Of a stretch of DNA of 64,000 bases, positions 1 to 40,900 are shown piece by piece. Source of the stretch: a virus; the IMG/VR virus record IMGVR_UViG_3300028374_000008, positions 1-64,000 of that record. One strand, 5' to 3'. A program made the position numbers and the translations under genes. The number at the start of each line of letters is the position of its first letter. Position 1 is the first letter of the stretch. The notes below the pieces were generated by a model. The model was not told where the DNA came from and did not search any database. It worked only from the letters and a program-made list of their open reading frames with translations.

Positions 1-90
1 CAGGCTCTTCAACCTCTTCAGGCTCTTCAACCTCTTCAGGCTCTTCAACCTCTTCAGGCTCTTCAACCTCTTCAGGCTCTTCAACCTTAG
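1..90. repeat. 18-bp tandem repeat coding for EEPEEV
   Basis: The unit caggctcttcaacctctt repeats head to tail about five times from base 1 and continues off the left edge. On the minus strand it codes for Glu-Glu-Pro-Glu-Glu-Val. The same unit in reverse complement occurs at 24616-24717. Confidence 0.9.
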
Positions 91-337
91 GCTCAGCAGG
101 CTCTTCAACGACAACAGGCTCTTCTGCGACGACACCGTCTCCATACTTTGCAGCGTACTCGGCTGCGGTGAGAACTTCGACGTAGCCTTTGCTCTCGTAT
201 CGGTGGACGTGATCGTGATCACGCGCCCAGTCGGGGAGTCTTTTTATGGACCCTTTTTGACCCGCAGGCTTGAGCTCGAATTTTCCATGAAACATGAAAA
301 TCTGCGTCTGCGAGATGTTGATGATGTAGTTGCTCAT
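1..337 (-). CDS. Acidic repeat protein, C-terminus cut by window edge
   Basis: I do not recognise the family. The start is the ATG at 337, and the frame stays open through the left edge, so at least 112 residues are visible. The first ~70 residues form a normal-looking small domain (MSNYIINISQTQIFMFHGKF...). From about residue 80 the protein becomes a run of EEPEEV units encoded by an 18-bp direct repeat. It is the last visible gene of the leftward virion operon and lies beyond a terminator that follows the capsid gene, so it may be expressed at a lower or separate level. The acidic repeat unit is identical in DNA to one in the plus-strand gene at 24203-24778. A role as a head surface or decoration protein is only a guess from position. 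Confidence 0.7.
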   Translation of the reverse strand, partial: MSNYIINISQTQIFMFHGKFELKPAGQKGSIKRLPDWARDHDHVHRYESKGYVEVLTAAEYAAKYGDGVVAEEPVVVEEPAEPKVEEPEEVEEPEEVEEPEEVEEPEEVEEP

Positions 338-364
338 GATCGAGTCCCGTCGAGAAAGATACAA

Positions 365-401: not shown

Positions 402-1304
402 TCAGGTGATGGTGCACTTCACCAGGGAAGCGGTGTTACCGATTCCGATACCAGGCGCGGCGTACGAGAAGAACTCGATCATGTCCGCTTCCTGTTTGAT
501 GTAGAGCGTTGCGTCCTGAAGAAGGAAGAAGTTCCCCAGGTACTCTTGCGGCCCGAAGACCCAGAACTCATCGTTAGGCAGGATGTCGTTCTTGATGGTC
601 GTGATGACGGGGAACCCGAAGAGAGTGTTCTCCGACTCCACACCTTCGTCGTAGTGCCGCGACGCAATCCGGTCACCAACCGACGTAGCCGGCAGCGCCA
701 GGACGTCGTAGTAGAGTTCCTTCGTCATCAGAATCTTGCCGATCGGAATCCGACGGTTGAGAAGATTCTGGAACGCTTTGACGAACGCCTCAGCTTCAAG
801 ACCAGCATTCGTCACGATCTGCGTGGTTGCCGTCGCAATTGCGTCGATCGTCTCGTAGAACCGGCTATCCTCTTCATCGGCCATGTCCTTGACGGAGTTG
901 TCCGACAGGATCTTGCGGATGTCGTTCTGGTACGTCATCAGCTCGAACTTCGACTTCTGGAATCGCTGTGATTCCGTCTTGCCGAAGTACACGGCGTAGC
1001 GCGGGCCTTTGAACCAGGTTCGAGGGCCAGTGCCTTTGAAAGGGACGAACGTTGCACGGGAATCCGGCTCGATCTCAACGATCTTTTTCGGCAGGTCCGT
1101 GTTTTCGTCGCGATCGATTTCGTCGTCGCTAAGCAACTGCGGCGGAAGAATTTCGCGAGCGAAGGACGACTGACGAAGCTTTGAGCGGATAAAGGCAGAG
1201 CCTTCCTGCTGGGCTTCTTTCACTCGGCCGTCTTCGATTTTACGAAGAAAGCTCGAGTTGATCAGCTGGGCCGTGACCCGCGAGGTCTCGGTGTTATATG
1301 ACAT
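402..1304 (-). CDS. Major capsid protein, HK97-fold type (probable)
   Basis: A 300-aa protein with the look of an HK97-fold major capsid protein. It has a polar N-terminal arm, a central region with FVPFKGTGPRTWF and long helices, and a C-terminal stretch (LQDATLYIKQEADMIEFFSY, then a Gly-rich strand ending in VKCTIT) typical of the last strands of such proteins. Length fits the family. The ATG has AAGGAA upstream. It lies downstream of the prohead protease and scaffold-like genes and directly after a decoration-like gene, which is the usual head-gene order. A terminator follows it. Unlike the upstream internal proteins it has almost no K-x-A motifs. The assignment rests on sequence character and position; no search was possible. 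Confidence 0.75.
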   Translation of the reverse strand: MSYNTETSRVTAQLINSSFLRKIEDGRVKEAQQEGSAFIRSKLRQSSFAREILPPQLLSDDEIDRDENTDLPKKIVEIEPDSRATFVPFKGTGPRTWFKGPRYAVYFGKTESQRFQKSKFELMTYQNDIRKILSDNSVKDMADEEDSRFYETIDAIATATTQIVTNAGLEAEAFVKAFQNLLNRRIPIGKILMTKELYYDVLALPATSVGDRIASRHYDEGVESENTLFGFPVITTIKNDILPNDEFWVFGPQEYLGNFFLLQDATLYIKQEADMIEFFSYAAPGIGIGNTASLVKCTIT

Positions 1305-3985: not shown

Positions 3986-5941
3986 TTAGGACAGTATTGA
4001 CTGACCAATCAAGGAGCAAAGATCATCAAGATCTACTTCATCGTAGGACATGGGGTCATGTGACGCCAGTTTAGTTGCGCGTTTGTACAGCTGATTAAGT
4101 AAGTGTCCAACGCCGCCTACACCAGCCGATGTGCCGATGGTAGTGGATATTGGGTTCGCACGTGCGACGTTCCCGAGACCTGCAGGGGCGACGGACCCGT
4201 GGTCTTGTGCGAGTAGTCCCGTCAGGAGAGCGCCGCCTGCAAGAGGCACGACAAGCTCCAACGGTACAGAGCTGCGTTTTTCAATAAACTCTGTATTTAC
4301 AGGGACTTTGATGCCCTGGTCGGTGTCGAGCTTGTCCACGCCTTGGCCTTTTATGAGCCCATATGTGCCGCCCATGGCGCCAAGTGCTGCAGGCGCAGCG
4401 AGCCACGGGTACTTTGAGCTTAAGACTTTGTAGCCGCCGCCCATGATGGCAGACAATCCCGCCAGTTCGGCCATCTGTTTCTTTGTGTTCTCTGTGTCCG
4501 CACGCTCTGCTGCGCGGCGCGTTGTCTGGTACGTACGCCCCGATTTAGGGTCACGCCACTCGAGCACTTGATGTGTCGGGGTGTAGTACGCGCCGTCGGC
4601 AGACATCTCTTCGCCAGGCAAAAGCGCCATGATGTTGGATTTGTCGACCAGCGGGCCTATACTCTCGGGGATGTAGGTACGTGCCAGGTAGTCTTTGTAC
4701 AACGCACGCTTCTCGCGCAGGGGCGCAGCCAGCCGCATGACGTCAGGCGAAACGTACTCTGACGCCACTTTAAAGAAGCCTACGTCTTCTAAGCGTTTGT
4801 AGACGTGAGGCATCTCGGCCATGACCGCGGCCACTTTGCCTTGCGACATCGCTATCCGCTTCTCGACTTCATTGTCTGTGGGAAGTCCATTTTGCGCGGT
4901 CAGGAAGCGGAAAATCTCGACCGTAGTCGGGATCATTCCGAGTGCGTTGAACGAGCTAAAGAGCTGCGGCGATGACACGTGACTGATGGACTGCATCTGC
5001 TCGTGGCTAAGCGTCGGCGTACCGCACAGCCACCCGTTCATCGTACGCAGCAGGTTCTTTGTGTGCTGGTACTCTTCTTCCGACATGGTTACGGAATTGG
5101 TCGTCGGGTTTACCATGTCGCCCGTGATGACCTTGTCGATGTCTGAGACTTTCTGCAGGATCGCGCGCTTCTCGGACAAGTCGTCGACACGCGCACCCAG
5201 CGCGGCACTTGTCTGCAGTGCGTACGGCTCCGCGACCTTTTTCATCGTGTAGCCGATACGGTCTGCTGGCTTGAATACGAAGCTGATGTCAAAGAGATGG
5301 GGTGCGGGGTTCCAGACGTAGTCACGGAAACCGTCAGGGGACAAGCGGTTCATCCCAAACTCAGGGTTCGACCCGTTGACGTGCTCGCAGTACTGCTCTC
5401 GAGTAGGCGCGCGGTTTCCGCACCGGTTGCACACATCGTACTTGATCCGGCAGCCCATCGAGACAGCGGGGAATTCCCCACCATCAATACGGCCTACGAT
5501 GTCCATCGCCTTGGAATTTTCCAGGCTGAGCAGGAGCTCAACGCGGTGCATCTTCCAGTTGTAGAAGGATTTCATGACATCGCCAAAGCCCTTCTTCGGG
5601 TCTTTGTTGATGTGGTGACGGTAGGCCTTTGCGTGCTGCTCAAACGTCTTGTGGTGCTCAGGGAGCGTCTCGCCTGGTGCGACCGCCCACTGCCCTGCAA
5701 TCTTTACAGGCTTTTCCGCGAAGGCGTCGCCGTTGCGGTTTGGCCCGTAGTACTCACTGGCGGACATCGCCAGGACGAGCACAATGGTGCGCCCCTCGAC
5801 AGCATCAATCGTCGAGCAGTAATCCAGTGTGTCCGACGACGCGTATTTGTAGAGTGCACGGTCCCGGGGGTCGATGATTTGACACCGCGCCTCGCCCGTA
5901 CGCTCAAAGTGTTCGTCGAACTGTAGGATCTTTGGGAGCAT
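3986..5941 (-). CDS. Prohead (head maturation) protease with C-terminal extension
   Basis: 651 aa. The N-terminal ~240 residues resemble gp21-type serine proteases of phage heads: an NRNGDAF motif at ~68-74, candidate catalytic histidines at 96-97 and 109-110, and the strand PAVSMG with Ser161 as probable nucleophile. A metal-binding cluster follows (C171-x2-C174, C185-x-H187). Residues ~250-651 are an extension with K-x-A motifs (KKVAE, GKVAA, FKVAS, TKLAS) and Gly/Ala-rich hydrophobic segments, so the enzyme may process itself and its tail may stay in the head. Only the first part matches known proteases in length. Its place between core proteins and the capsid gene is typical. The catalytic residues are assigned by eye. 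Confidence 0.75.
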   Translation of the reverse strand: MLPKILQFDEHFERTGEARCQIIDPRDRALYKYASSDTLDYCSTIDAVEGRTIVLVLAMSASEYYGPNRNGDAFAEKPVKIAGQWAVAPGETLPEHHKTFEQHAKAYRHHINKDPKKGFGDVMKSFYNWKMHRVELLLSLENSKAMDIVGRIDGGEFPAVSMGCRIKYDVCNRCGNRAPTREQYCEHVNGSNPEFGMNRLSPDGFRDYVWNPAPHLFDISFVFKPADRIGYTMKKVAEPYALQTSAALGARVDDLSEKRAILQKVSDIDKVITGDMVNPTTNSVTMSEEEYQHTKNLLRTMNGWLCGTPTLSHEQMQSISHVSSPQLFSSFNALGMIPTTVEIFRFLTAQNGLPTDNEVEKRIAMSQGKVAAVMAEMPHVYKRLEDVGFFKVASEYVSPDVMRLAAPLREKRALYKDYLARTYIPESIGPLVDKSNIMALLPGEEMSADGAYYTPTHQVLEWRDPKSGRTYQTTRRAAERADTENTKKQMAELAGLSAIMGGGYKVLSSKYPWLAAPAALGAMGGTYGLIKGQGVDKLDTDQGIKVPVNTEFIEKRSSVPLELVVPLAGGALLTGLLAQDHGSVAPAGLGNVARANPISTTIGTSAGVGGVGHLLNQLYKRATKLASHDPMSYDEVDLDDLCSLIGQSILS

Positions 5942-14819: not shown

Positions 14820-17800
14820 TTAGCGCGCAGGTCGGGTGTTGGCAACCCCGGAGGGTGCTTGCTGCTGTTGTTGTTGTTGTTGCTGCGTTCGGCGGCGTCT
14901 CAGTTCGTCGTAGTATTGCTGCGCGCTCGTACGCGCTGACTGTAGGTCAGAGTACTGCTCCATGACAGGACTAGACTGCCAACCCCGTGAGTAGGCAGAC
15001 CGTAGACGGTCTGAAACGGCGTGGTCTCCTGCGTCTTGAGGCGGCGTGTAGTTCGGGTCGAGACCACGCCCGATTGCTTTACCTCCCGCGATGACGGGCG
15101 AGGCAAACGCGACGCCGCCAAGGTTGAACGGGCTGGCCGCGGCCCACCCAAGAACGTCACCGACAGCACCGCCTACGTTCTCGTAGCGCGACTCGTTCTC
15201 GCCGACAGGTTCCGTTGCGGCGTAATAAAGAGCCTGGGCGGGCGCGACGAACGTGTAGTACTTGGCCGCCGCTTCCATTGCAGCGGGCGCAGCCAGTTCC
15301 TTTAGCGATCCCTTACCTGCGCGCCAACGTTTGTAAGATCGCAGCGTATCCGGGTCGATCGCGAAGTCTCCCGCCATAACACCGCCACGTCCAAGTATAC
15401 CGCCTGTACGGTAGCGCTGGCGAAGTACCTCTAACGGGTCCTCGCCAAAGACCATGTCTTTTGCGAAGCGGCCAATAGGGCGCCCGCGTCGCTGCGCCTG
15501 CATGTAGTCTTCGTACATCTGCGGCGTAATGCGCTGCCCCAACCCCGGTTTAATGGCGTCAAACTCTTTGGGATCGAAATCAGGAATGGCCTCGCCTTTG
15601 TACTGGCGACGTAGGCCCGGACGACTCTCGTCGAGCTTGCGTATGAAAGCGTCGCCTTCAGAGGTCATGATGCCGCGGTCCGTTAGCCCAGCGTCTTCTA
15701 AGTCCAATCCGCCCATACGATCGGCCGCGCGGCGAAGCTCAACTGCGCGCGAGTCGACGCCGCCGCTGGGCGAGATAATCTTAAACGTGTCGTCATCAAG
15801 CGCTTTTCGGAGTTTGTTTGCGCCAGATACACCCGCACCGCGCCCGAACATTACACGTTTAAGCGTGCTCAGCGATGCCTGCTTTGCCTCCATGGGCACG
15901 CCGTCGACCAGAGCTGCAGCGTCCAGGGCAGACTCCTCTGGAGCAGGCGGGGGCGGGGCAGGCGCTGCTTTTGGTTTCGGGGCTTCGGCCACTTCTGCGT
16001 CCGGGTTGTCGACGAAGAACTGTACGATAGATTCGAGCAGGCCTGGCTCTCCTTCGTCTTCTCGCCGCTGCTGCGCGTCGCGACGCAGCTCACGTGTGGG
16101 CCGGTTAATAGGCGCGGTCAGCGTGTCGACAACGAATTGGTCAACTTCGGATGCGTACTTGCCCTGCTGCCCCGTCGCGAACGGGCGTCCCTCGATGTAG
16201 GCAGGTACCGGAGACGTCGACGAAACATCTGTCGTCATGCCAAAGCCGGCCCCGTCGACGAGCGTCTTACGCAGGTACCGGTGGGACAGTCGGCTCATCC
16301 AGTCGTCACTCAACAGAGGCGTCTGGATCATCGACTTCATGATTGGCTCAATGCGCGGCCCTTTGGTTGCTACCTCTACTTCTTTAACGTTTTGGCGCTT
16401 GAGCTCAGATATTACGCTCTGCGTGACGCGGGTGCCTTCTGTGTAGTGAAGTACAGGGGCGGCGAGCGTCTTACCCTGTGCTTGTCCGACGGGGATACGT
16501 TTAGGTGACTTGCCGAACGCTCCCTTTATTTTGTTGAACTCAACAACGTCGCCTGGAATGAACTGGCCTGAGTCGTCGTCTTCGACCCGAACGTAGTTCA
16601 TCGCCTTACGGGACAGGAGCTCCGTGTGACGCCGGTCAATGTCGACGCCCTGACGCCGGTAGAGCTTGGTGAGCGAGTCCGACAGGTAGCGTCTACCTTC
16701 GCCGATGCCTTTGTGCCGTACGACGGCGTCGGGCATGGGCGTGCCATCGGTGAGCGCGTCGCCTGCTTCAACTCGGTCGCCGACCTTTACAATGGGGTCG
16801 AGTTTGGGCGGCGTGTAGTAGCGCTTGCCAGCAAGCGTAATGTAGTGGCCGCCCTGCGGCGCCTTAACGATGCTCTCGATTTTGCCGTCTTTTTCCGCGA
16901 TAGCGGCTTTGTCCGTAAACGACTTTGGCACTTCGGTGAGCGTCTTAAAACCCGACAGCCCACGGAGCTTGTTGTCGTCGCCGCCTGCCAGTCGGACGCC
17001 GTGTTTTGCGTTCAGGACGAACTGTGTAAGCGGCTCCGTCAGAGCCTGCGCACTGCGAGAGCCGACGTTTGTCCCGACAGGGTAGGGCTTGCCCCACTCG
17101 TTTAGGCCCATGCATTTACGGCATACACCGTCCTTGGCTTCACACGTAGAGGGCGAGCGCACGAGTATGCGGTCGACCCCCTTCTTGTTGAGCGTGTTGA
17201 CGACGTCTGGTGTGACGAGCTCGTTCCGGGGCAGGCCTGATTCTGAGCGTGCCAAAAAGCGGTCGGCAATCTGGTCATCGGTGTCGAGCATGATGCCTGA
17301 GCGTGTGCCGCAATCTTCCTGCGTAACGACCAGGTCTTCCATATTCGACACGACCACCTTTGCAGCGGCGCCCGGCTCGACGACCGACCCCGTGGACGCA
17401 ATCGCGTTACGACGTGATTCGACGCCCGTCACCCACGCATCAGCAGGGTTAAGGCCTTGCGCATATGATTTGGTGACGAGCCACGGCGTGACCTCGCCGT
17501 GTGCGGTCGCCACCACAGGGGAAGCCACAGTCTTCATCAACTGCGGAATGGAGCCCCGGCCTCCTGACCTGGCCATGATGGTCATGTCAGAGGGGTGATT
17601 TTTTGTGATGTCTACAAACTTGTTCTGCGTGTCGAGCAAGATGCCGCGCTTTTCTTCGTCGGACTTGGCCGCCTTCATTTTACGCAGCGCGTCCTGCATG
17701 ACAGGGTCACGGTTTTTGTAGTCAGGCGCGATGTCATCAAGCCCCACAGAGATACCTTCCCAGGTAGCTACCTGGTCCCCCACACGCTTGATCTCTTGAA

Positions 17801-17945
17801 TTGCCTTTACGTACTCACGGGGGTTGCTCTTGGCGTATGTGGTCATCGCCTTGCGCAGCTTTCCCTTTGTGATGGGGCCGTCAATGGTGACGCCCGAAGG
17901 AAGCGCGTCCTGCATGAGCATTTGCCCAAACGTCAAATCAACCAT
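14820..17945 (-). CDS. RNA polymerase beta' subunit, C-terminal part, with virion-type tail
   Basis: 1041 aa from the ATG at 17945, which overlaps the upstream stop by 8 bases; an in-frame start at 18014 would overlap far more. It continues beta' where the upstream chain stops. The bridge helix is MARSGGRGSIPQLMK. The trigger-loop region runs from HGEVTPWL through GLNPADAWVTGVESRRN to LVVTQEDCGT. All four Cys of the second beta' zinc site are present (EDCGT, then C-x6-C-x2-C in STCEAKDGVCRKC). VGSRSAQALTEPLTQ matches the late conserved helix. By hand alignment the catalytic-type trigger-loop His is replaced. From about residue 670 the protein is not polymerase: a Pro-rich linker, AKQAS, helical parts, a Gly/Ala hydrophobic stretch and a poly-Gln C-terminus. 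Confidence 0.9.
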   Translation of the reverse strand: MVDLTFGQMLMQDALPSGVTIDGPITKGKLRKAMTTYAKSNPREYVKAIQEIKRVGDQVATWEGISVGLDDIAPDYKNRDPVMQDALRKMKAAKSDEEKRGILLDTQNKFVDITKNHPSDMTIMARSGGRGSIPQLMKTVASPVVATAHGEVTPWLVTKSYAQGLNPADAWVTGVESRRNAIASTGSVVEPGAAAKVVVSNMEDLVVTQEDCGTRSGIMLDTDDQIADRFLARSESGLPRNELVTPDVVNTLNKKGVDRILVRSPSTCEAKDGVCRKCMGLNEWGKPYPVGTNVGSRSAQALTEPLTQFVLNAKHGVRLAGGDDNKLRGLSGFKTLTEVPKSFTDKAAIAEKDGKIESIVKAPQGGHYITLAGKRYYTPPKLDPIVKVGDRVEAGDALTDGTPMPDAVVRHKGIGEGRRYLSDSLTKLYRRQGVDIDRRHTELLSRKAMNYVRVEDDDSGQFIPGDVVEFNKIKGAFGKSPKRIPVGQAQGKTLAAPVLHYTEGTRVTQSVISELKRQNVKEVEVATKGPRIEPIMKSMIQTPLLSDDWMSRLSHRYLRKTLVDGAGFGMTTDVSSTSPVPAYIEGRPFATGQQGKYASEVDQFVVDTLTAPINRPTRELRRDAQQRREDEGEPGLLESIVQFFVDNPDAEVAEAPKPKAAPAPPPPAPEESALDAAALVDGVPMEAKQASLSTLKRVMFGRGAGVSGANKLRKALDDDTFKIISPSGGVDSRAVELRRAADRMGGLDLEDAGLTDRGIMTSEGDAFIRKLDESRPGLRRQYKGEAIPDFDPKEFDAIKPGLGQRITPQMYEDYMQAQRRGRPIGRFAKDMVFGEDPLEVLRQRYRTGGILGRGGVMAGDFAIDPDTLRSYKRWRAGKGSLKELAAPAAMEAAAKYYTFVAPAQALYYAATEPVGENESRYENVGGAVGDVLGWAAASPFNLGGVAFASPVIAGGKAIGRGLDPNYTPPQDAGDHAVSDRLRSAYSRGWQSSPVMEQYSDLQSARTSAQQYYDELRRRRTQQQQQQQQQAPSGVANTRPAR

Positions 17946-18495
17946 ACCCGCCCCCTGCGCCCATTCGACTGTACCGATTTGCGCCGTATGCAAAGCCCGG
18001 AGCGGCCAGTGCACCTGCGGTAAGCGGCGCGTCCACTACGTCGAACGCTTGCATCGCTTTGCCTCCCGCTGTTGTCGGCTTCGCCGTTTGATCCGCAAGA
18101 CGCGTCGCTCTGAAGTACTGTCGGGAGCTTTTGCCAGCGTTGTTTACGGCACGCGCACCGGCAGCTACCCCTTTCCCGGTTGTTTTAGCTCCCCAACCAA
18201 GCGCTTTGCCGACGCCTTTTGCTGCAGCGCCTATTCCCTGCGCGACCGCTCCCATGACAGCCGCTTCTTTGATGATCTCTTCTTCTGTCATGTAGGCCAG
18301 ACGGTGCGTTACAGCAGCAGTCTTGACCCCTTGCATGGGCATGTGCACGTTCTGCTGTGCAATACTTTGCGACTCTAGAGACGCAGCAGGGCCCCAGTAA
18401 ACCGGCTCTTCGTACGACGGCACGATGCGCCTGGCGTCACGAATATTCGTGCTCGCGTTTTGTACCGCTTCAATAAAATCGGAAGTACTTTTCAT
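17938..18495 (-). CDS. 185-aa Gly/Ala-rich protein between the two RNAP genes
   Basis: The family is not recognised. The N-terminal ~60 residues are polar. Then come VKTAA and IKEAA motifs and a long Gly/Ala segment (residues ~75-115, with GIGAAAKGVGKALGWGAK) that could form an amphipathic or membrane-active helix. It is coupled to both RNAP genes by short overlaps (ATGA at the start, 8 bases at the end). Its composition matches the internal virion proteins downstream rather than any RNAP subunit, so I infer a partner that stores or ejects the polymerase. Confidence 0.6.
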   Translation of the reverse strand: MKSTSDFIEAVQNASTNIRDARRIVPSYEEPVYWGPAASLESQSIAQQNVHMPMQGVKTAAVTHRLAYMTEEEIIKEAAVMGAVAQGIGAAAKGVGKALGWGAKTTGKGVAAGARAVNNAGKSSRQYFRATRLADQTAKPTTAGGKAMQAFDVVDAPLTAGALAAPGFAYGANRYSRMGAGGGYG

Positions 18496-21400
18496 GACTT
18501 GCCTTTGATCTTAACACGCGAGTTCATTTTTATCTCCCCACGCTTGTACGCAGCGAGCGCATCAGCCTTCGTCGCGAATGTTTTCGTCTTGCCCGTAGCG
18601 CTGTCCTTGGTGGCCATGTAGGCGCCAATGAGCGCCTCATGTGCGGGGAAGACCATTAGATCATCTTTTGAGCGGTCACCAAACAAAAGATTGGAGAGCG
18701 TAATGGATTTGGCCTCGTTCTTGGCGGCGTCACTCACCGGCGTGTGGAGCTGGACAGTATCGCCATCATAGTCAGCATTCATTCCACTTTCAGCAAACGG
18801 GTTGAGCCGAATTGTCTTACCCGGCACAAGCTTAGGGTACGCAGCGACCATGTTAAAGCGGTGCAGCGACGGTGCCCGGTTGAACAGGACAGGCCGGTCT
18901 TGGATCTCAATGTCGAGCTCACGCTTGGCTGCAGGCGCTTGGTCTTTGTAGAGCTGACGCGCTTCGGTCGCAGAGTAGCCGTTCTTGATGAGGCGCTTCA
19001 CGATGAAGGGCTCGTACATGCGCCAACCCATCTGCTCCGGCACACCAAGCTCGTCCAGCCCCAGCGTGTGGTCGGGTGCGATGGTTGCACGCCCTGACAG
19101 GTCTTGGCGCTTCTTGAGCATACGTGAGTGGAAGAACCCGCCTTTGGGTGACCCGGTGCCGGTGATTTGGCGCAAGTGACCTTTGACGCCCCGGCCTTTG
19201 TTCTGCGGGCTGACGGGATCGTTGGTCCCAAATAGCGCCCCAACGGTGTCGTGCAAGTGGCGCCGCTGCAGCTTCATCTCATCAGGGTAGCGCAGTTCTT
19301 CGGGCGTCTCTTTGATGGACTCATTGGCGAGCATGACGTCGCGATAGAGATAGTTGGCGTCAGACACCAGCGTCGTACCATCTGGGTTGGGCGTGATAGG
19401 ACGCACTTTAGGGGGCGTGACGGGCAGCTTTGTAAGTACGTACGCGTCGCCTGGGCGCATCTGTTCTTTGCTAAGCGCCCGGATGTACTTCAGCTTCTTG
19501 ACGGCAGTGTTCCGTGCTGAGCCGCTCCGGGACCGAACCTGCTCTTGGAGATCTTTCTCGAGCTTGTTTAGGTCGAGGTTGTTGAGCATACGCTTGACCT
19601 CTGCGGCGCCCTTGTCGTCGCGGAAATCTTGGAACTCAGACTTTGTCATGCCCAAGAGACGCCGGGCAGGCTCGACAAACACAGGGTTTACGACGGGCTC
19701 TGCTAGGTCAATCTTTGAGTACTTGTCCCCGTCTAAGCCGCCTGTCGCGGCCGGGTCAAAAAGTCCGCCTTTCTCGGGCGCAATCGTGGGCACACCGTCA
19801 ATCTTTTTGGGCTTTACCAGCAAGGCGTTATTGATGGTGCGCTCTGCCATGTCGTCGATGTCACGATCTGTCAGCGGCGCCAAGGTGCGCTTGGTTCCAT
19901 CTTTGTTGACCTTGATGCCTGCGCCGTGGAGCGTCTTGGTAAACTTGTCGTACGCGAAGTTTGTAGACGGAGTGGGCGCAGGCAGGCCAAGCTGTAATCG
20001 ACGCCAGTACTCATCGTTCTTTTGGCCTTTGATCGACGTCACATCAGACAAGATGTTTCGAGCGTTGTGCGCGATGAGCGCATTGAACTCCATCTTACCT
20101 ATAGATTTGGCGCCCTCATCGCCGCCCTTTGTAGGCTGCATGTTGGCGTCGTAGCCAGGACCGATGCCGCGCGCGGCGTAGTTGGTGTCCGTCGACTTGA
20201 ACAGCTTGTAGACGTACTGGCGTCCGACGTGGATGTTGGGGATTTTCTTGTCTGAGAGTGGGTCGTAGACAGTCTCCTTGTCTTTGACCCCATGCTGCTT
20301 CATCAAGTCTTTGGCCCACTGAACGTTGTCGTGGTCGGCAAACTGGTCAATGACGACGGGCTTGCCTGTTTTCTCCGCTACTTTTCCTACCGCGGTTTCT
20401 AGGATCTGATTAGGGTTGATTCGAGTGATGATGCCCGCGGACGTCATCAGGATGTCGAGGGGCTTTTCCTTCTCGTCGCGCACCATCTGGTCGTCGGGGA
20501 CGATTTTGGAGACGACGCCTTTGGCCCCGTACCGGTTCGCTAGCTTGTCGCCCACGCGCATGGGCTCGTCGGTACGGATGGTGACGAGTACTTGGCTACT
20601 CGTGATAGCGACGTCTTCGACTGTGCCTGGGTTGTGGTGGTCCCACGTCACGGCGGCGTCGCGGTACGGCTTGACCAGGGACTTGTGAAGGCGCCCAAGC
20701 ATCTGTTGCTTGGAACTGGCCTGCGAAGACTTCATGGCGGCGATGACAATCTCGCCGTTGTTGATGCGCTGGCCTTTCTTGATGACGCCTTTGCGGTCCA
20801 GCCGGTTGTACTCCGCTTTCGAGTAACGCGACCCGAAGTAGGCTTTGTGCTTGTCACGGTCGAGAACAGTCGACGGGTCGATGTCGATCTTCTCTTTGTA
20901 CATGTGCATCGACGTCATCTTCGACGCAGCGCCCTCCGAGATAACGACAGCGTCGTTTGAGTTCAGCCCGTTGTACGGCATGTACCCCACCGACATGTTC
21001 TTCCCCAACGCGAGTTTACCGTTACGGGTGAAGTTGTTGTCTGCCAGCACCTGGTTCTTTTTGACGCGGTCACCCTTCTTTACTTTGAGCTCGTCGTTCA
21101 GGTACGTCTTCGACATCAACGGAAACATCTGCGAGTAGGGGACTTTGTGAAGCTCCGCGTCGTCCGCGGCTTGTTTCATCATGCGGCCGGGCTCGTCTGG
21201 GTCATACGAAGAGAGCCCCATTCCCTCGTATATTTTCATGAGCGTTTCTTTGTCGACCGCTTTGTCCTTGTAAGGACGTGCACGTAGCCGCAGTACCTCG
21301 CCGCGGTGGTCCTCTGTTATGCGCGCCATAAGCTCACGCGCCAACCCTTGCCCGCGGTTGTCTGGATTTACCCAGACGCCGCTGATCCAAGGCCCATCGC

Positions 21401-23279
21401 CCTCTGTAGAGGTAGGTTTTAGCGACGCATACGCTACGTTTTTTCCATCTATGTGCGCATCGTACCTACGCATGAGTTCTTCGTCGTCGTCAGACCCGTG
21501 GTCATCAAATACGCTGTACGTTACTTCTGATGCGCTTTTCATCCGGTCCGGCCGAATGTAAACGAAGTCTCCGTCGATCTTGTCGATGGTGCCGTCGACA
21601 GGTGAGATTGGAACAGTCATCTCACCGAATTCTTGTTCAACGGTACGATCGTCCCCCGCCCAGCTACGCACTTGGACGTACGGCTCTTCACGCTCTTTAA
21701 GGGGCAGCGCCTGGGTCTGCATCTTCGAGCCCATGATGTTTCGGTTGCCCTGCGCCGACTCCAAAAACGGCACCAGATTCGTAGTAGGCGAGTACATCGA
21801 CGCGGAGGTGGGGATGCTGTAATCGACCTCAGTAGGCTTCACCGATACAACTTTGCCGCGACGCATGGCGTCGACGTACTTACTTCCCGTCAGCTTTTGG
21901 TTAGGGAACGCAATCGTCTTGTCTTCCAACTCGTCTGCCCGCTTGTACTCAACCTGGCCTGTTCGCCGGTTCTTAAGCGGCGCATACATATTGCCGTCGT
22001 CATCGCGCGCCGTGTGCAGCGCCGTGCGGACATCGATACCTGCTTTGCCTGACTCGGGCGTACGGACAGGGTCAATCATTCCGAAGTGGGAGTAGTGGAC
22101 ATCGCGCGCTTCGTCGGGGACGGCCAGGGTCGAGGAGATGCCGCCCTCACCCAGCGACGTCACTTTGACGGACTGGTCGATAATCTCCATCGGGTTGATC
22201 TGCATAGGCGTAGCAGACAGGGCCGACGTCGTGAGGAAGTTGTGCACGGACTTTGAGAACGGCGCGTTGGGCAGCACGTCGCCTACTTTGAGCGCGTCCT
22301 TTGTCTTGGACCGGTTCATTTTTCGTCGGACTTTGGAGCGCACGTCGCGTGCTGCGTCTTTCTCGATGCGCTCTTTGAAGAACGACTCAACGGTATGCAG
22401 CGTCTTAAATGCAGTGGAGTCGCGGTCGTCCTGCTCTTCTTTGTCGTTGTAAACGTTGAGAAGCTTCTGGCTTGCACGCAGGAGCGCCTTGGGCTGGACC
22501 GTGTCGAACTTTTGGCCCAGCGTCATCTGCGTAACGTTGGCGTCCATGCTCGTCGTTTTGTACGACTCTTTGATGGCCTCAATGCGCTCTTCGTGGGACA
22601 GCCCTGTCTTACGTGCAAAAGACGGGATGACCTTTTCGTAGAGCTTTCGGATGTGTTTGTTTTCTTTGCCCGACGAGTACGACTTGTTGATCTTTGTGAC
22701 GTCCGCATTCCACATGCGGGTCATCTTGGAGTCGCTCACGCCAAGGGCAGACAAGACCGCGTACAGCGGAATGCGTGTCGTGCCGTACTGCATGAAGAAC
22801 ACGCCGCGCTCAGGGTCCATCTCCAGGCGGAAGTTGCGTCCTTTGGAGAGGTTAAATGACGCCTCGAGCTGGCCATTTTCGCGTTGGCGTGTGTAGACGC
22901 CGGGCTTGATTCGGACCTGGTTTGCGACCGTGTAGTCGTTACCTCCCATTACAAATGTGTGCCGCTCCGTAAAGTAAGGTAGGTGCACGAGTGTACGCTT
23001 TGATCGGTCGAGGATCTTACCTGACTTCTTGTCCTTGAGAGTCACGGTGCCCTTCAAAGGCTCCACCAGCGTACGGCCTTCCATGAGCGCCAGCTTCTGC
23101 TCAGACGGAGAAAAGACAGTCGGCTTGTAATCGAAGTCTTCAACGTCGAGTTCGTAGTCGTCCGTCGACAGCGAGGGGATGACGTTCCGGATACCGTCCA
23201 TTGCGTGTTGCCGGATGCGCTCGCGGCGGTCTTCTGCGCGGGTCATCAGCTCATACAGGCGTGGTTTGTCGTCAGCCAT
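18492..23279 (-). CDS. RNA polymerase beta fused to beta' N-terminal part, with GNAT insertion
   Basis: 1595 aa in one frame. Beta signatures in order: TFVMGGNDYTVANQVRIKPG, LGEGGISSTLAVPDEARDVH, MIDPVRTPESG, GKNMSVGYMPYNGLNSNDA, RVGDKLANRYGAKGVVSKI and INPNQILETAVG. Beta' signatures follow: LSGRATIAPDHTLGLDELGV, DRPVLFNRAPSLHR and the catalytic triad motif NADYDGD at about 1501-1507. The chain ends ~90 residues later, before the bridge helix, which is on the next large gene. The first beta' zinc finger appears absent. Residues ~580-705 are an extra domain of GNAT acetyltransferase type (GVWVNPDNRGQGLARELMAR, then KIYEGMGL), bracketed by MKSAS and MKQAA. Alpha and omega are not in the window. 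AAGGAA precedes the ATG. Confidence 0.93.
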   Translation of the reverse strand: MADDKPRLYELMTRAEDRRERIRQHAMDGIRNVIPSLSTDDYELDVEDFDYKPTVFSPSEQKLALMEGRTLVEPLKGTVTLKDKKSGKILDRSKRTLVHLPYFTERHTFVMGGNDYTVANQVRIKPGVYTRQRENGQLEASFNLSKGRNFRLEMDPERGVFFMQYGTTRIPLYAVLSALGVSDSKMTRMWNADVTKINKSYSSGKENKHIRKLYEKVIPSFARKTGLSHEERIEAIKESYKTTSMDANVTQMTLGQKFDTVQPKALLRASQKLLNVYNDKEEQDDRDSTAFKTLHTVESFFKERIEKDAARDVRSKVRRKMNRSKTKDALKVGDVLPNAPFSKSVHNFLTTSALSATPMQINPMEIIDQSVKVTSLGEGGISSTLAVPDEARDVHYSHFGMIDPVRTPESGKAGIDVRTALHTARDDDGNMYAPLKNRRTGQVEYKRADELEDKTIAFPNQKLTGSKYVDAMRRGKVVSVKPTEVDYSIPTSASMYSPTTNLVPFLESAQGNRNIMGSKMQTQALPLKEREEPYVQVRSWAGDDRTVEQEFGEMTVPISPVDGTIDKIDGDFVYIRPDRMKSASEVTYSVFDDHGSDDDEELMRRYDAHIDGKNVAYASLKPTSTEGDGPWISGVWVNPDNRGQGLARELMARITEDHRGEVLRLRARPYKDKAVDKETLMKIYEGMGLSSYDPDEPGRMMKQAADDAELHKVPYSQMFPLMSKTYLNDELKVKKGDRVKKNQVLADNNFTRNGKLALGKNMSVGYMPYNGLNSNDAVVISEGAASKMTSMHMYKEKIDIDPSTVLDRDKHKAYFGSRYSKAEYNRLDRKGVIKKGQRINNGEIVIAAMKSSQASSKQQMLGRLHKSLVKPYRDAAVTWDHHNPGTVEDVAITSSQVLVTIRTDEPMRVGDKLANRYGAKGVVSKIVPDDQMVRDEKEKPLDILMTSAGIITRINPNQILETAVGKVAEKTGKPVVIDQFADHDNVQWAKDLMKQHGVKDKETVYDPLSDKKIPNIHVGRQYVYKLFKSTDTNYAARGIGPGYDANMQPTKGGDEGAKSIGKMEFNALIAHNARNILSDVTSIKGQKNDEYWRRLQLGLPAPTPSTNFAYDKFTKTLHGAGIKVNKDGTKRTLAPLTDRDIDDMAERTINNALLVKPKKIDGVPTIAPEKGGLFDPAATGGLDGDKYSKIDLAEPVVNPVFVEPARRLLGMTKSEFQDFRDDKGAAEVKRMLNNLDLNKLEKDLQEQVRSRSGSARNTAVKKLKYIRALSKEQMRPGDAYVLTKLPVTPPKVRPITPNPDGTTLVSDANYLYRDVMLANESIKETPEELRYPDEMKLQRRHLHDTVGALFGTNDPVSPQNKGRGVKGHLRQITGTGSPKGGFFHSRMLKKRQDLSGRATIAPDHTLGLDELGVPEQMGWRMYEPFIVKRLIKNGYSATEARQLYKDQAPAAKRELDIEIQDRPVLFNRAPSLHRFNMVAAYPKLVPGKTIRLNPFAESGMNADYDGDTVQLHTPVSDAAKNEAKSITLSNLLFGDRSKDDLMVFPAHEALIGAYMATKDSATGKTKTFATKADALAAYKRGEIKMNSRVKIKGKS

Positions 23280-24202: not shown

Positions 24203-24778
24203 ATGGGAATTCGTAACGCGCTTATTCGAAAGCTTACCAAAAAAGTAACTGGAGCGGACGCTGTCCGAGCGATCGGGCACGCCGTGAAGGGGGCGGCTAT
24301 GAACGCCCCCCCTGCCGTGAAGGGCGCTGGCGCACTCGCAGCGCTAGGCGGCGCTGTGTACGGAGCTTCCTCCGTACGGAACGCTTACAAACTAAACGCG
24401 GAATGGGTAAACCAAGAGGTGGATACACCTCTTGGTCGCGGCGTCTGCACTTCCGTGCAGGGCTGGGACAACGGAGGGTGCATCCTCCGTTGCCAGGTAG
24501 CACGTGGCGGAAGTGCAGACATCTACCTGTTCCGCACAGAACAGCTCACGCCCGTGCGTGAGCTACCAGAAGTCCCGGAGCTCACGCAGCCTTCGGCTGA
24601 AGAGCCGAAGGCTGAGGTTGAAGAGCCTGAAGAGGTTGAAGAGCCTGAAGAGGTTGAAGAGCCTGAAGAGCCTGAAGAGGTTGAAGAGCCTGAAGAGGTT
24701 GAAGAGCCTGAAGAGCCGAGGGCCCGCGCTTCCCGCCGTAAGGCGGAGAAGGCGGACGACGTGAAGGATGCGTCGTAA
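24203..24778 (+). CDS. 191-aa protein with TP-x-GRG-x-C domain and EEPEEV tail
   Basis: The ATG at 24203 has AAAGGAGAG upstream. Residues ~30-65 are Ala/Gly-rich (VKGAGALAALGGAVYGAS), possibly membrane-inserting. Residues ~70-120 are a small beta-type domain (DTPLGRGVCTSVQGWDNGG, then YLFRTEQL) that parallels the previous gene. From ~130 on the chain is acidic repeats (EEPEEV) encoded by 18-bp units, ending in a basic tail. The same units appear at the left edge of the window on the other strand. It stands alone between its own promoter and a strong terminator. A virion role is likely from composition, but not shown. Confidence 0.7.
   Translation: MGIRNALIRKLTKKVTGADAVRAIGHAVKGAAMNAPPAVKGAGALAALGGAVYGASSVRNAYKLNAEWVNQEVDTPLGRGVCTSVQGWDNGGCILRCQVARGGSADIYLFRTEQLTPVRELPEVPELTQPSAEEPKAEVEEPEEVEEPEEVEEPEEPEEVEEPEEVEEPEEPRARASRRKAEKADDVKDAS
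24616..24717. repeat. 18-bp tandem repeat coding for EEPEEV (second locus)
   Basis: About five copies of gttgaagagcctgaagag, one expanded by nine bases, in the 3' part of the gene at 24203. This is the exact reverse complement phase of the repeat at 1-90, so two unlinked genes on opposite strands share it at DNA level. Confidence 0.9.
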
Positions 24779-25217: not shown

Positions 25218-26933
25218 TTATTGTACGGGCTGCCCAGACTGTTGCTGCGCCAGCTCGAGGCGTTGAATGACGACGGAGTAGAAGACAAAGTCTTCGTTTT
25301 GCATCTGCGCCAGCATACTGCGGCGCTCGCCGTATGGCATCTGCATAAGCTGCTCGACCTGCATGTCCGCGTCGGCAATCATCTTCTGCTGATCGTATCC
25401 GTAACCCTGGCCGTGCCCGGCTTCCTGCGCGGCCTGCTCAGCGATCGAGGTCTGAATCTTCTGCATCTCTCGGTCCTGCTTGAGCTGCATACGCATCTGG
25501 TTAAGCGCTTCTTGCTGTATTTGGTCTTGCTCTTCGTCGTAGTCGAGGTCGAGGGTCTCCGAGATGGTGCGTCGTGACATCAAGTTGTAGGAGGCGTCGG
25601 CCTGGAGCATCATCTGCTTCTGCTGGATGTCGTCGATAAACTTGAAGTTGGTGATGTCTGCTTCGACGGTGTCCCACCCCATGTAGCCAGCAATCGAGTC
25701 GCACATCCACTGCAACACATCTTTGATGTCTGCGGTGTGTGAGCGGAGCTGGTTCTCGAGCATCCGAAGAGTCACCGAAGATCCGGTATAAGAAAGTCCG
25801 CCGTACAAAAACTCTCGTGGCACTCCAAGCCCTGCGATGATGTTGTCCTCTGCTTCTTTGATCTCCCCAAGCGTCATCAGCGTTCGGCCCTGGCCGCCCA
25901 TCTGTGTTACGCCAAGTGCAACAGGCGCGAACATGATGTGGAGCGGGTCTTGGCGCCAACGTTTGATCGATTTGCGCGTCTCTTTGACCCACTGCGCATA
26001 CGAGATTGTAATCGCAGGGTCACTCGAGCCAGACGTCTGCGCAGGATGCAGAACCCGCATAGGAACAAGGTGGTCCATCGCGATGGCTTCGTTTGCCTTG
26101 CGTAATATCTCGGCGTAGTAGAACTGTTTCATCACCGCCATCAGAGACGGGAACCCCCACGCACTGGCAACACCTGCTGGGGCATGCGTCTTCATGTGGA
26201 AGATTTTCCCCTCGTCGAACTCGAACGTGGCGTCGTCTTGGAGTGCTGCGCGGATAAACCCTTTGGGCGTATCGTTGAGCATCGTAACGTCTCCCTCGCG
26301 GATGCGTTCTTTGAGCGCCGCAGGGATGTTGTAGTGATATATGATGCGCCCGGTGATGGGGTTTTCCTGCAGGTCAATCTGCTTCGGGTCCCACCGGATG
26401 ATGTTGATACGGTCCGGGTCGTAAATCTTAACGTCTACGACATCGTCGAGCTTTGTAGCCGACGTCTGACCGCAGTTCTTACATGAGAATTTGATGCTGG
26501 GATTGTTTTTGTCTTTAGCCTGAAACGAGTACTCGCCGATGCGCCGGATGTCCCACTGCGACCCGCAGTTTGAGCACGGGACCAAACGCTTGAACGGGAA
26601 GTACATCGACGAGAAGCTGTTGCCGTAGAGCTTGCGGTCCCGGGAGAGCGCTTTTAGCAGGGATGCGCCATGCATCGATTTGTTAATCAGGTCGTCGTAC
26701 TTGCCGCGCAGAACATCGTTTGGTGTGGTGAACGTTATGTCCGTGATAACGTAGTCGCCCATCTTCTCGAGCGCCTGCATGATGTGCGGAGAGTTGTAAT
26801 AAACGTACTCAATCCACCGGAACAAATCCTTGAGCTTTCGCGGCATGAACCCCGTCAAGTAATTGAACATAGGGTTCGGGTGCGAATTTGACCCACCGAA
26901 TAGGTCGGTAGGCTCTCGTACAATCGAACTCAT
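25218..26933 (-). CDS. Portal protein
   Basis: 571 aa with portal-like features: an N-terminal region starting LFGGSNSHPNPMFNYLTG, a central core with GKIFHMKTHAPAG and a channel region (EIKEAEDNIIAGLGVPREFL, then YGGLSYTGSS) typical of phage portals, and a long Gln/Met-rich helical C-terminus. Two CxxC pairs (120/123 and 151/154) form a zinc-ribbon-like insertion unusual for portals. It is separated from the terminase by 16 kb, whereas these genes are commonly adjacent. It starts 72 bases from the divergent helicase gene, so promoters for both must lie in that short gap. Confidence 0.85.
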   Translation of the reverse strand: MSSIVREPTDLFGGSNSHPNPMFNYLTGFMPRKLKDLFRWIEYVYYNSPHIMQALEKMGDYVITDITFTTPNDVLRGKYDDLINKSMHGASLLKALSRDRKLYGNSFSSMYFPFKRLVPCSNCGSQWDIRRIGEYSFQAKDKNNPSIKFSCKNCGQTSATKLDDVVDVKIYDPDRINIIRWDPKQIDLQENPITGRIIYHYNIPAALKERIREGDVTMLNDTPKGFIRAALQDDATFEFDEGKIFHMKTHAPAGVASAWGFPSLMAVMKQFYYAEILRKANEAIAMDHLVPMRVLHPAQTSGSSDPAITISYAQWVKETRKSIKRWRQDPLHIMFAPVALGVTQMGGQGRTLMTLGEIKEAEDNIIAGLGVPREFLYGGLSYTGSSVTLRMLENQLRSHTADIKDVLQWMCDSIAGYMGWDTVEADITNFKFIDDIQQKQMMLQADASYNLMSRRTISETLDLDYDEEQDQIQQEALNQMRMQLKQDREMQKIQTSIAEQAAQEAGHGQGYGYDQQKMIADADMQVEQLMQMPYGERRSMLAQMQNEDFVFYSVVIQRLELAQQQSGQPVQ

Positions 26934-37793: not shown

Positions 37794-37995
37794 CGACGAC
37801 ACCAAACTACAGAAGCAGTTCCTCTCCTCGTTTAGCGACTTAGACGACTTCGAAGGCGTCCACGTCAAGGGAGGGGAACTGACTGTCTGGGTACGTGACA
37901 CAAAGACGGCAGACAAAATTACAACCCGCATCGCCGATGACGAGAACCTCCAACAACTTTTCCAACCCGACAACTTAGTCTTCAAATATGGCTGA
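37786..37995 (+). CDS. 69-aa protein between primase-helicase and polymerase
   Basis: Overlaps both neighbours by 8 bases, so it is translated as part of the replisome operon. Acidic N-terminus (MNNDDTKLQKQFLSSFSDLD), then a compact region with GGELTVWVRDTKTADKI. No family is recognised. Size and context suit a small accessory of the polymerase or primase. Confidence 0.65.
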   Translation: MNNDDTKLQKQFLSSFSDLDDFEGVHVKGGELTVWVRDTKTADKITTRIADDENLQQLFQPDNLVFKYG

Positions 37996-40900
37996 TACCG
38001 AAACGATTTCCCCTCCCAGCTGGAAGCGTGCAAAGAAAGCCCACAGCTGCGTTGGATGTCCTTTCCAACGTTCGCAGTGCATGCTCTCCGGCCTCTATAA
38101 CCCCAACGCAACACTCACCATCGTCGCTGAAGCACCCGCTCCTGACACCATGTCCGCACGGCTGCCGTTCCAAGACAGAGAGGCGGCTGTCATCCGAGAG
38201 ATTATTCGTAAGGTCCGTGTCCAACACGGCTTGCCTGTTCAGTACAACGCAGCATACGTCGTCGGCGCCGCCCACCAGCGTGCGCCAAAGAAAGCAATCG
38301 TCACGCAGTGCTTCCCCTACTTAGAAGAAAAGCTTGGTGAGCACCGCAAGTACTACGACCACTTCAAACCTGACTGTGACAACATGCACGTCATCGTCAC
38401 GCTCGGTAAAACGGCCACGCAAGCGTTCTTACCTCGCATGGGGTCGCTTAAAAGCGCACGGGGCAAAGCCATTGAGATAACGGTGGGGGACCGGGACTTC
38501 ATCATCATCCCGACGTACGGCCCGCTTCAGCTTCTGTACACGCCGGGCCTGTCCCGTACGATCAAGCGTGACATCCACAAGGCGTGGCGCCTGTCCCGTC
38601 AATCGTCTCTGGACGCGCGAGCGCCTCTTGAGGAGCTCACCGCTGAGTATGTGTACCCCAAGACCCTCGAGGAGGTCGAAGCAGTCTGTACGGAGATTCT
38701 GTCGTACACAGACCCGGATAAACGTCCCGACCCAGACGACTGGCCCATCGCAGTCGACATCGAGACCAACACACTTCATCCCTACCAGCCCGACGCGCGT
38801 GTAAACGTTGTGTCGATTGCGTGGGACGATGGTCTTGCGACGTCCATCCTGCTCGACCACCCCGACGTTGCGTACGACACCGCGCAAGCGTGGCCGCACG
38901 TCGCCAAAGTCTTGGCCTCGAACAAGCCAAAGGTCTTCCACAACGGCCGCTTCGACATTCAGTTCCTGGAGCACCGCTTAGGTCACAAGGTCAACAACCT
39001 GTGGTGGGACACCATGTTGGCGGAGCACTTCTTGGACGAGGACAAGAAAGGGGAGTACAGCCTCAAAGTTCTGGCAGGGCACTACACTGAGGAGTACGCA
39101 GGCTACGAGAACATCTTGCAGCAAGCGTTCTTTGATGACGAGCTTGAGCGTCGCCGCGCCGACTTACCCGAAGGGCAAACCGCCCCTGACTGCGAGCAGT
39201 CCTGGGCACTCATGGCGTTCTTCCCTGGGCTAGACTACAAACCGTCATTTCTGCAGGTCGATGAGGACGAGGATTTAGAGCTCAAGAAAGAGCTTTTCAA
39301 CCTCGACAAGGACTACCTCAACGCCCACGTCAACAACTACAGCAAGGGCAAAACCAGTGCGCGCGGCAAGATTAACCGCCGGTGCGACAAGCACGACTTA
39401 GAACGTCCTGACACGGTAGACGACCTCGACTTCCAGCGCGTCGGGGACAACGGCTTTGAGCACATTCCAACGCCGGTGCTGTTGCGTTACGCAGCGGTCG
39501 ACGCCGACATCACGCGTCAGATTGTACGGTCGCAGCGCCAGCGCATGGTCTTGGCGGACGTTGAGGAGCAGACGGTGTTCCGAGACGGTAAGCGCACGAT
39601 GACTGAGCTGTACGTGCCAGGGACAATGGCCCTGTCTCGCATGGAGTACAAAGGCACACGGATGAACATTGAGCTCATCGAGACGTACCGCGAAGAAGCG
39701 GCAGTGCTCGAGGACAAAGCGCTGGCTGCGCTGCGTCAGTTGATCTGCCAACCTGAGTTCAACCCAAACTCGACCAACGACTTAGCGCAGGTCGTTGAGT
39801 ACGCTCTCGACATCCCAAGAGGCGATCTACAGTACACCGACGAAGGGTCTATCAGCGTGACCAAGGATTGGTACAACGCCATGGCCACGAAGTTTGAAGG
39901 CTCGTACACCGGCGAGTTCATGTACTACCTGCAGGTCTTTAAAGCGGCAGCCAAAACACGATCGTCGTTCCTAAAGAAGTTCGTTGAGATGGCCAAGCTC
40001 GACGGACGCATCCACACACGTTTCAACCTAAACGGTACAGCGACGGGACGTCTGTCGTCTGCTGGGCCCAACCTGCAAAACGTGCCACTGTACATGTGCC
40101 GCTTCCAGCCTCCGCCTGGCATTGAGCTTGGCCACTCCGGCATGAACATCAAAGCAGCCTTTATCCCGTCGACAGACGACAAGGTGTTCTTCCAGCTCGA
40201 CATTGCTGCTGCTGAGATTCGAGTGCTGTGTGCCTACGCTCGCGACCCCAAGCTGATTAAGGCGTTGCGTGAAGGCCTGGACGTCCACTCCTTTGTGGCG
40301 TCCGAGATCTTCGATATTCCGTATGACGAGGTCTACGCCAACAAGGACATCGACCCCGAGATGAAGCTCAAGCGTACGGCCACCAAGCGTGTGGTCTTCG
40401 GGATGATTTACGGGGCGGGGCCATACAAGATCGCCGAGCAAATCTACGGTGCGCTGGCACCAGAGGACTCGGACGAGTTTCACAAGCAGGTGGGTTTTGC
40501 CAAAGAAGTGATGAGCCTTTTGTTTGACCGGTTCTCCGGCATCCAGAAGTACATCGACGAGACGCATCGCACCGTAGACAGCCGCGGCTTCGTGACCACC
40601 TACTTTGGGCGGTACCGACGCTTCCCGCTCAAAGACACGTCGTGGAAGCTTGCACGACGTGCTGAGCGCATGGCGGTTAACTTCAAGATCCAGTCCACGG
40701 CGTCGGACATCGTGCTGTCGCAGTTGTGCGAGGTCGAAGAACACATCCACGAAATAGGAGGAGACTTACTGCTGACCGTCCACGACTCCGTGGCCGGCGA
40801 GATTGACCGTGACCGCGTCCCTGAGATGCGAGCGTTCTTTGACCACTACATTGTAGAGCGGGTCAAAGAGCGGTTCCCCTGGCTGCCTGTGCCGTTCAAG

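What the first reader, a model, noticed from the sequence alone, without database searches (positions are those of the whole stretch)
21150..21550. GNAT acetyltransferase domain inserted inside RNA polymerase beta
Between about residues 580 and 705 of beta lies sequence typical of GNAT enzymes (VNPDNRGQGLARELM, then KIYEGMGL). Flanking beta motifs resume normally on both sides. An acetyltransferase embedded in a phage RNAP could modify host RNAP, sigma or nucleoid proteins on injection. I know of no described example.
Basis: partly seen in the sequence, partly recalled or inferred. Interest (0 to 1): 0.85.

Follow-up and report, generated by a model that had tools for sequence, protein, structure and literature searches.

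The report
Swappable enzyme cassette inside phage RNA polymerase
This phage carries a small acetyl-transferring enzyme inside its own RNA polymerase, at a spot where related phages carry other enzymes or just a short linker, and probable cutting sites on both sides suggest the enzyme is snipped free inside the virus particle and injected into the host with the polymerase.

Summary
A complete, compact GNAT domain (about 121 residues) sits in frame in the beta part of a beta/beta' fusion, exactly where cellular beta has a hairpin turn (T. thermophilus 615|616). AlphaFold2 gives a confident GNAT fold on flexible tethers.

The comparison adds more. Of 185 distinct phage beta sequences, 86 have a tight turn, 80 a short linker, and 17 a domain at this same site: GNAT (two kinds), InPase pyrophosphatase, a SLOG-like domain, or two- and three-domain strings. 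Gains and losses recur on the tree. GNAT and InPase are typical of virion-borne "polyvalent" effector proteins.

Nearly every linker and every insert end carries K-x-[AGS]. K-x-A is enriched about twofold in this phage's virion block and in phage Arash, not in its replication genes, and is invariant near the capsid protein N-terminus (15/15 phages plus Arash), so it is probably the head-maturation-protease site. In Arash, published mass spectrometry found beta to be the most-detected virion protein.

Best reading: the virion RNA polymerase doubles as a carrier of interchangeable, protease-excised effectors. Enzyme activity, cleavage and target are untested; acetylation of host RNAP is not shown.

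The parts
18492..23279 (-). RNA polymerase beta fused to the N-terminal part of beta' (1595 aa), carrying the cassette
   Evidence: Pfam Rpb2_3, Rpb2_6, Rpb1_1, Rpb1_2; PDB beta and beta' matches
21168..21530 (-). GNAT cassette, residues 584-704 between the two predicted cuts
   Evidence: Pfam, alignment with relatives, AlphaFold2 and Foldseek; GC3 0.60 against 0.73 in the flanks
21528..21539 (-). N-side motif K581-S-A-S, predicted head-protease cut after A583
   Evidence: motif statistics; coordinates; cleavage is inferred
21165..21176 (-). C-side motif K702-Q-A-A, predicted head-protease cut after A704
   Evidence: motif statistics; coordinates; cleavage is inferred
21339..21356 (-). GNAT motif A, R642-G-Q-G-L-A647 (acyl-CoA pyrophosphate loop)
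   Evidence: R642 and G645 conserved in all four cassette GNATs; role from general GNAT knowledge
21228..21230 (-). Y684, candidate general acid of the GNAT
   Evidence: conserved in window, L025 and L026; role from general GNAT knowledge
14820..18014 (-). C-terminal part of beta' with a fused C-terminal extension; G-K-Y-A-S (16149-16163) stands where other beta' proteins end, K-Q-A-S at 15873-15884
   Evidence: Pfam Rpb1_5; comparison with L025, L001, L005, L041, L047, L079, L034; coordinates
17938..18495 (-). Small ORF between the two beta' pieces, with two K-x-A motifs; weakly conserved in L025 and L001
3986..5941 (-). Head maturation protease, the proposed cutter
   Evidence: phrog_18299 head maturation protease, E 3e-8; 36% identity to Arash gp222
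402..1304 (-). Major capsid protein; its only K-x-A (K29-E-A, 1209-1220) is the reference cleavage-site candidate
   Evidence: phrog_2522; motif kept in 15 of 15 orthologues
25218..26933 (-). Portal protein, upstream neighbour of the polymerase as in phage Arash
   Evidence: 29% identity, E 1e-89 to Arash gp204 portal

Best explanation
The insert is a complete compact GNAT acetyltransferase carried as an effector cassette in a surface hairpin of the beta subunit of a virion-packaged, multi-subunit phage RNA polymerase. Proposed steps: (1) the polymerase is made with the GNAT folded as an independent domain on two flexible tethers; (2) it is packaged in the head; (3) the head maturation protease cuts after the K-x-A motifs on either side (A583|S584 and A704|A705), so that beta is nicked at a loop that tolerates it and the GNAT is released; (4) polymerase and GNAT enter the host with the DNA; (5) the GNAT acetylates a host molecule early in infection, most likely a defence or host-takeover target. 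Shown by sequence and model: the domain, its fold, its intact motifs, the slot, its turnover and the motif pattern. Supported from a related isolate: step 2. Inferred: steps 3 to 5.
For: GNAT by Pfam and fold. Same GNAT type at the same site in L025 and L026, with Arg/Gly of motif A and the Tyr kept. Seventeen relatives carry a domain at this one site, mostly polyvalent-type domains (InPase PF18823, GNAT); InPase cassettes match minor-head, virion-structural and DarB-like antirestriction PHROGs. Repeated gain and loss on the beta tree. Strict motif K-x-[AGS]-[AS] in 75 of 80 linkers and 0 of 86 tight turns; K-x-[AGS] at both ends of 17 of 17 inserts and between domains of multi-domain inserts. 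K-x-A enriched in virion genes (102 against 53), not in replication genes, and in Arash (46 against 21); invariant in the capsid protein N-terminus; Ser 3.8-fold enriched after it in both phages; same motif at the beta' C-terminal fusion. Protease gene present. Beta is the most-detected virion protein in Arash, beta' the fifth.
Against: No cleavage, activity or virion data for this phage; the Arash beta has neither cassette nor motif at the site, and its authors allow that enzymes could be carry-over in the preparation. K-x-A also occurs inside folded parts (several in conserved beta, some inside InPase cassettes), so the motif alone is not sufficient for cutting. The motif was defined after looking at the linkers, although the capsid protein and Arash are separate checks. 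In SPN3US most head proteins are not cut and known cuts remove terminal propeptides. Substrate unknown.
Confidence: 0.55

Rival explanations
1. The GNAT stays attached to the polymerase and works in place, acetylating the polymerase itself, a sigma or other factor, or proteins on the transcribed DNA.
For: It is in frame in beta and modelled as a domain tethered next to the enzyme. Eukaryotic and bacterial GNATs do modify transcription proteins (general knowledge).
Against: Other phages put unrelated enzymes in the same place, which argues against a polymerase-specific job; probable cut sites lie on both sides; many sister phages lack it.
Confidence: 0.2
2. The K-x-A motifs are not cut sites but packaging signals or just favoured linker sequence; the cassette is injected as part of intact beta.
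For: Capsid-targeting sequences in other phages sit next to cut sites, so the two are hard to tell apart (general knowledge, T4). Some K-x-A lie in folded regions.
Against: Invariance at the capsid protein N-terminus, where a head protein is normally trimmed; Ser preferred after the motif, as for the SPN3US protease; motif at each domain boundary of multi-domain inserts and at the beta' C-terminal fusion.
Confidence: 0.15
3. Neutral or selfish insertion: the loop tolerates foreign domains and they drift in and out without serving the phage.
For: Frequent gain and loss; lower GC3 of the insert (0.60 against 0.73).
Against: Intact motifs over large divergence, constraint of the same order as beta between window and L025 (pN/pS 0.43, dS saturated), and bias of the contents towards effector-type domains.
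Confidence: 0.08
4. Assembly chimera or sequencing error.
For: The window is a metagenomic virus record.
Against: Open frame throughout, and independent contigs carry the same GNAT type at the same site.
Confidence: 0.01

Closest known systems
Polyvalent proteins of phages and conjugative elements (Iyer et al. 2017, PMC5512222), including N4-like virion RNA polymerases fused to effector domains
   Same: Multi-domain proteins mixing GNAT, InPase, ART and other effector domains, encoded among virion genes and thought to be injected; N4-like virion RNAPs are fused to ART, metallopeptidase, lysozyme or PBECR domains.
   Different: There the polymerase is the single-subunit N4 type and domains are strung along a giant protein. 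Here the carrier is a multi-subunit beta with one internal slot, and the separators look like sites for the head maturation protease rather than a built-in metallopeptidase.
RNAP-encoding Caudovirales (mReC, Weinheimer and Aylward 2020, PMC7481178) and phage Arash (PMC10585845)
   Same: Multi-subunit beta and beta' of a phage lineage; Arash shares gene order, capsid protein, portal and protease homologues and has beta in its particles.
   Different: Neither paper reports inserted domains (the Arash beta has none). Membership of the window in mReC was not tested by phylogeny here.
AcrVA5, a 92-96 residue GNAT anti-CRISPR
   Same: Compact GNAT of similar size from mobile elements; Foldseek TM 0.75 by its length.
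   Different: About 20% identity in the structural alignment, not found by sequence, free-standing; no evidence for the same target.
T4 Alt, P1 DarA and DdrB, SPN3US ejection proteins
   Same: Proteins packaged in the head, in several cases processed by proteolysis, and delivered with the DNA.
   Different: Those are separate proteins or terminal propeptides, not an internal excised domain of a polymerase.

Membership tests
GNAT superfamily | Sequence profile match above curated cut-off | tested here: met
   PF00583 30.8 bits against 20.7 in the whole protein; PF13508 30.3 against 27 for the isolated region
GNAT superfamily | Motif A R/Q-x-x-G-x-G/A | tested here: met
   R642-G-Q-G-L-A647; Arg and Gly kept in L025, L026 and L075
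GNAT superfamily | GNAT fold | tested here: met
   AlphaFold2 pLDDT 79; Foldseek probability 1.00 to many GNATs
GNAT superfamily | Acetyl-CoA binding and transfer | not testable with these tools
   needs the purified protein
Phage polyvalent effector proteins | Two or more unrelated effector domains of the catalogued kinds in one phage protein | tested here: met
   GNAT in the window; InPase PF18823, P-loop and other domains in relatives at the same site
Phage polyvalent effector proteins | Encoded among virion genes | tested here: met
   next to portal, in one block with head protease and capsid protein
Phage polyvalent effector proteins | Packaged in the virion and delivered to the host | tested here: inconclusive
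   shown by mass spectrometry only for the relative Arash, which lacks the cassette
Head-maturation-protease substrates | Carries the motif seen at the capsid protein N-terminus | tested here: met
   K-x-A on both sides of the cassette and invariant in capsid proteins
Head-maturation-protease substrates | Cut by the protease | not testable with these tools
   needs protease assay or virion proteomics
mReC RNA polymerase clade | Falls in the mReC branch of the RNAP tree | not tested
   no tree with the published mReC and cellular set was built
AcrVA5 anti-CRISPR family | Detectable sequence homology to AcrVA5 | tested here: not met
   AcrVA5 is not among the PDB sequence matches at E up to 1; fold similarity only

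The most novel reading that the evidence does not exclude
A lineage of phages uses its virion RNA polymerase as a general carrier: a fixed loop of beta is a plug-in slot for interchangeable effector enzymes, and the head maturation protease treats the polymerase as a polyprotein, cutting each effector free at K-x-A sites. One essential virion enzyme would thus deliver a quickly changing set of anti-host functions at the moment of injection.
Probability: 0.5. Interest if true: 0.9.

Novelty: new variant of a known kind. Interest (0 to 1): 0.8.

Why it matters
As far as I could find, it would be the first multi-subunit RNA polymerase known to carry swappable host-attack enzymes. It also gives a predictable place to look for new anti-defence proteins: read the same loop of beta in each phage of this group. 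The contents (GNATs, pyrophosphatases, a SLOG-like domain, unnamed domains) can be listed and tested one by one, and the proposed cleavage rule can be tested directly by proteomics.

Tried and rejected
Assembly error: rejected because relatives carry the same insert. Intein: rejected; inteins do occur in this part of beta in other phages (L010, L017, L023, L114), but downstream of the slot, and the window insert has the GNAT profile. Cellular origin of the slot: none of the 80 best GTDB hits has a match long enough to hold the GNAT. A GNAT-only search of viral contigs found just the two beta loci and a phage-record search one non-significant hit, so no free-standing parent of the cassette was found. 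A selection test with dS was limited by saturation. PADLOC gave nothing for the cassettes tried. Chance K/A/S-rich linkers: rejected because composition-preserving shuffles do not give the motif and the reversed motif is not enriched. A first sampling of relatives suggested that the insert was unique to the window; wider scans corrected this. One search failed on wrong coordinates and was repeated; one search failed on a short search term and was repeated.

Full report
What is there. The ORF 18492-23279 on the minus strand encodes 1595 residues: RNA polymerase beta followed by the N-terminal part of beta', up to and beyond the NADYDGD motif. The rest of beta' lies in 14820-18014, after a small ORF (17938-18495). 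Between beta residues 581 and 705 Pfam finds Acetyltransf_1 (30.8 bits against a cut-off of 20.7; 35.6 bits with the region alone) and Acetyltransf_7. In the PDB comparison the beta match is interrupted exactly there: T. thermophilus beta residue 615 pairs with query 577 and residue 616 with query 706.

Fold and integrity. AlphaFold2 with only three sequences gave pLDDT 79 and pTM 0.72, with four strands, a helix, a strand, a helix and a last strand. Foldseek against the PDB returned GNATs at probability 1.00, among them the small anti-CRISPR AcrVA5 (TM 0.75 by its length) and many protein-modifying and toxin GNATs. In a larger model of beta 360-1000 built on 60 sequences (pLDDT 89.6) the GNAT is well predicted and replaces the turn between two strands (residues 572-577 and 711-714), with lower confidence at the two tethers. 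The acyl-CoA loop RGQGLA and the Tyr of KIYEGMGL are present; Arg642 and Gly645 are kept in all four cassette GNATs and the Tyr in three.

Relatives. IMG/VR scans gave about 300 beta loci, many of them the same contigs found twice. L025 (65-73% identical beta, sister in the tree with SH-aLRT 95) has an orthologous GNAT at 47% identity. Its third codon positions are far more diverged (28% identical) than its amino acids; pN/pS is 0.43 against 0.35 and 0.29 for the flanks and lies inside the 0.16-0.61 range of beta windows of the same length. dS is saturated, so this is suggestive only. L026, with a more distant beta, has the same GNAT type (35% identity). L075 has a different GNAT. L001, the next relative, has only a 25-residue linker with two such motifs, possibly a deletion scar. 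The insert has lower GC3 than its flanks (0.60 against 0.73), which fits acquisition from elsewhere.

A slot with changing contents. After removing duplicates, 185 beta sequences other than the window could be read through the site. Of these, 86 have a tight turn like the cellular enzymes (up to 3 extra residues), 80 have a 4-60 residue linker, 17 have a domain insert (about 130 residues or more), and 2 have inteins a little further on. By Pfam the inserts are GNAT (L025, L026, L075) and InPase (above cut-off in L034, L079, L093, L105, L106, L078, L029 and L096; below cut-off in L031 and L077; L058, L104 and L257 by resemblance to these). L027 carries a domain that I read as SLOG-like (it matches a PHROG of unknown function). 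L093 has a ParB-like stretch (my reading) before the InPase, and L077 has three units: an ADP-ribosyltransferase-like stretch (my reading, no profile match), an InPase and a P-loop kinase-like domain. On the beta tree the presence of an insert changes at least seven times, and filled and empty sites can be sisters (L026 and L048).

The flanking motif. The strict form K-x-[AGS]-[AS] is in 75 of 80 linkers and in 0 of 86 tight turns (which are short, so little is expected there). All 17 inserts have K-x-[AGS] within the first six residues of the segment and again 4 to 11 residues before its end. Against shuffles that keep composition the strict form has z 19 in linkers and 11 in inserts, while A-x-K is flat. 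In multi-domain inserts the motif also stands between domains (L077, L093, L096). Filled sites have two copies where empty sisters have one, for example L048 PDAKHASVVEGTK against L026 TEKHSSA[GNAT]ASAKHASVLEGTK.

Why it is probably a head-protease site. In the window's virion block K-x-A occurs 102 times against 53 expected (z 7.5) and K-x-[AS][AS] 44 against 14; the replication genes (z 1.3 and -1.0) and the reversed motif are flat. The major capsid protein has exactly one, at residue 29, and a K-x-A is kept near this place in 15 of 15 orthologues, window included. The isolate Arash shows the same enrichment (46 against 21) and the same capsid motif. In both phages Ser follows the motif 3.8-fold above background. 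A head maturation protease gene is present (3986-5941) and matches Arash gp222. The published SPN3US protease has the same kind of rule: three residues, A-X-E, with Ser preferred after the cut. Finally, in the window, L025 and L001 extra sequence is fused to the C-terminus of beta', and the junction reads GKYA followed by A or S exactly where other beta' proteins end: the same motif at a second fusion in the same enzyme.

Is the polymerase in the virion? For this uncultured phage it is unknown. In Arash, which shares the gene order and has homologues of beta, beta', portal, protease and capsid protein, mass spectrometry of particles found beta to be the most-detected protein (3516 spectra) and beta' the fifth (1210). 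The authors name early transcription or carry-over as possible reasons. Arash itself has no cassette.

How it most likely works. Put together: the polymerase is packaged, the head protease cuts at the two K-x-A sites, GNAT and nicked polymerase enter the host, and the GNAT acetylates a host target. Packaging is supported by a relative, cutting by the motif statistics, and the effector role by the company the domain keeps: InPase and other polyvalent-protein domains, with InPase cassettes matching minor-head and DarB-like antirestriction families (PMC5512222). The substrate is open; nothing here favours host RNAP over a defence protein.

Novelty. Virion RNAP fused to effector domains is known for the single-subunit N4-like enzymes (PMC5512222). 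I found no report of an effector inside a multi-subunit beta, of a fixed slot with exchange, or of flanking maturation-protease sites (open-access papers only). I therefore rate it a new variant of a known kind, with high interest.

Noticed in passing
window 49889-51136 (+): Phage-encoded reverse transcriptase (Pfam RVT_1 E 8e-21; best PADLOC model RT_XIII E 4e-64), of a type used in anti-phage defence. Partner genes were not looked for.
   Followed up: partly
window 14820-15870 (-); L025 8150-9284; L001 16909-18403: A C-terminal extension of about 350-450 residues is fused to beta' only in the window, L025 and L001; the other four relatives checked end at the beta' core. It has no Pfam match and may be an internal virion protein.
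   Followed up: partly
window 46387-47409 (-): A lone minus-strand gene among replication genes has nine K-x-A motifs in 340 residues, as many as the head proteins, so it may be a packaged internal protein.
   Followed up: no
window 37988-41038 (+): DNA polymerase A with an N-terminal uracil-DNA-glycosylase-superfamily domain in one protein.
   Followed up: no
L010, L017, L023, L114 (beta): Intein-like inserts in beta of more distant relatives at a shared point just downstream of the cassette slot; L018 has a second intein-like start followed by endonuclease-like sequence with stops.
   Followed up: no
window 1-364 (-) and 24203-24778 (+): Two proteins end in long repeats of the type EEPEEVEEPEE.
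   Followed up: no
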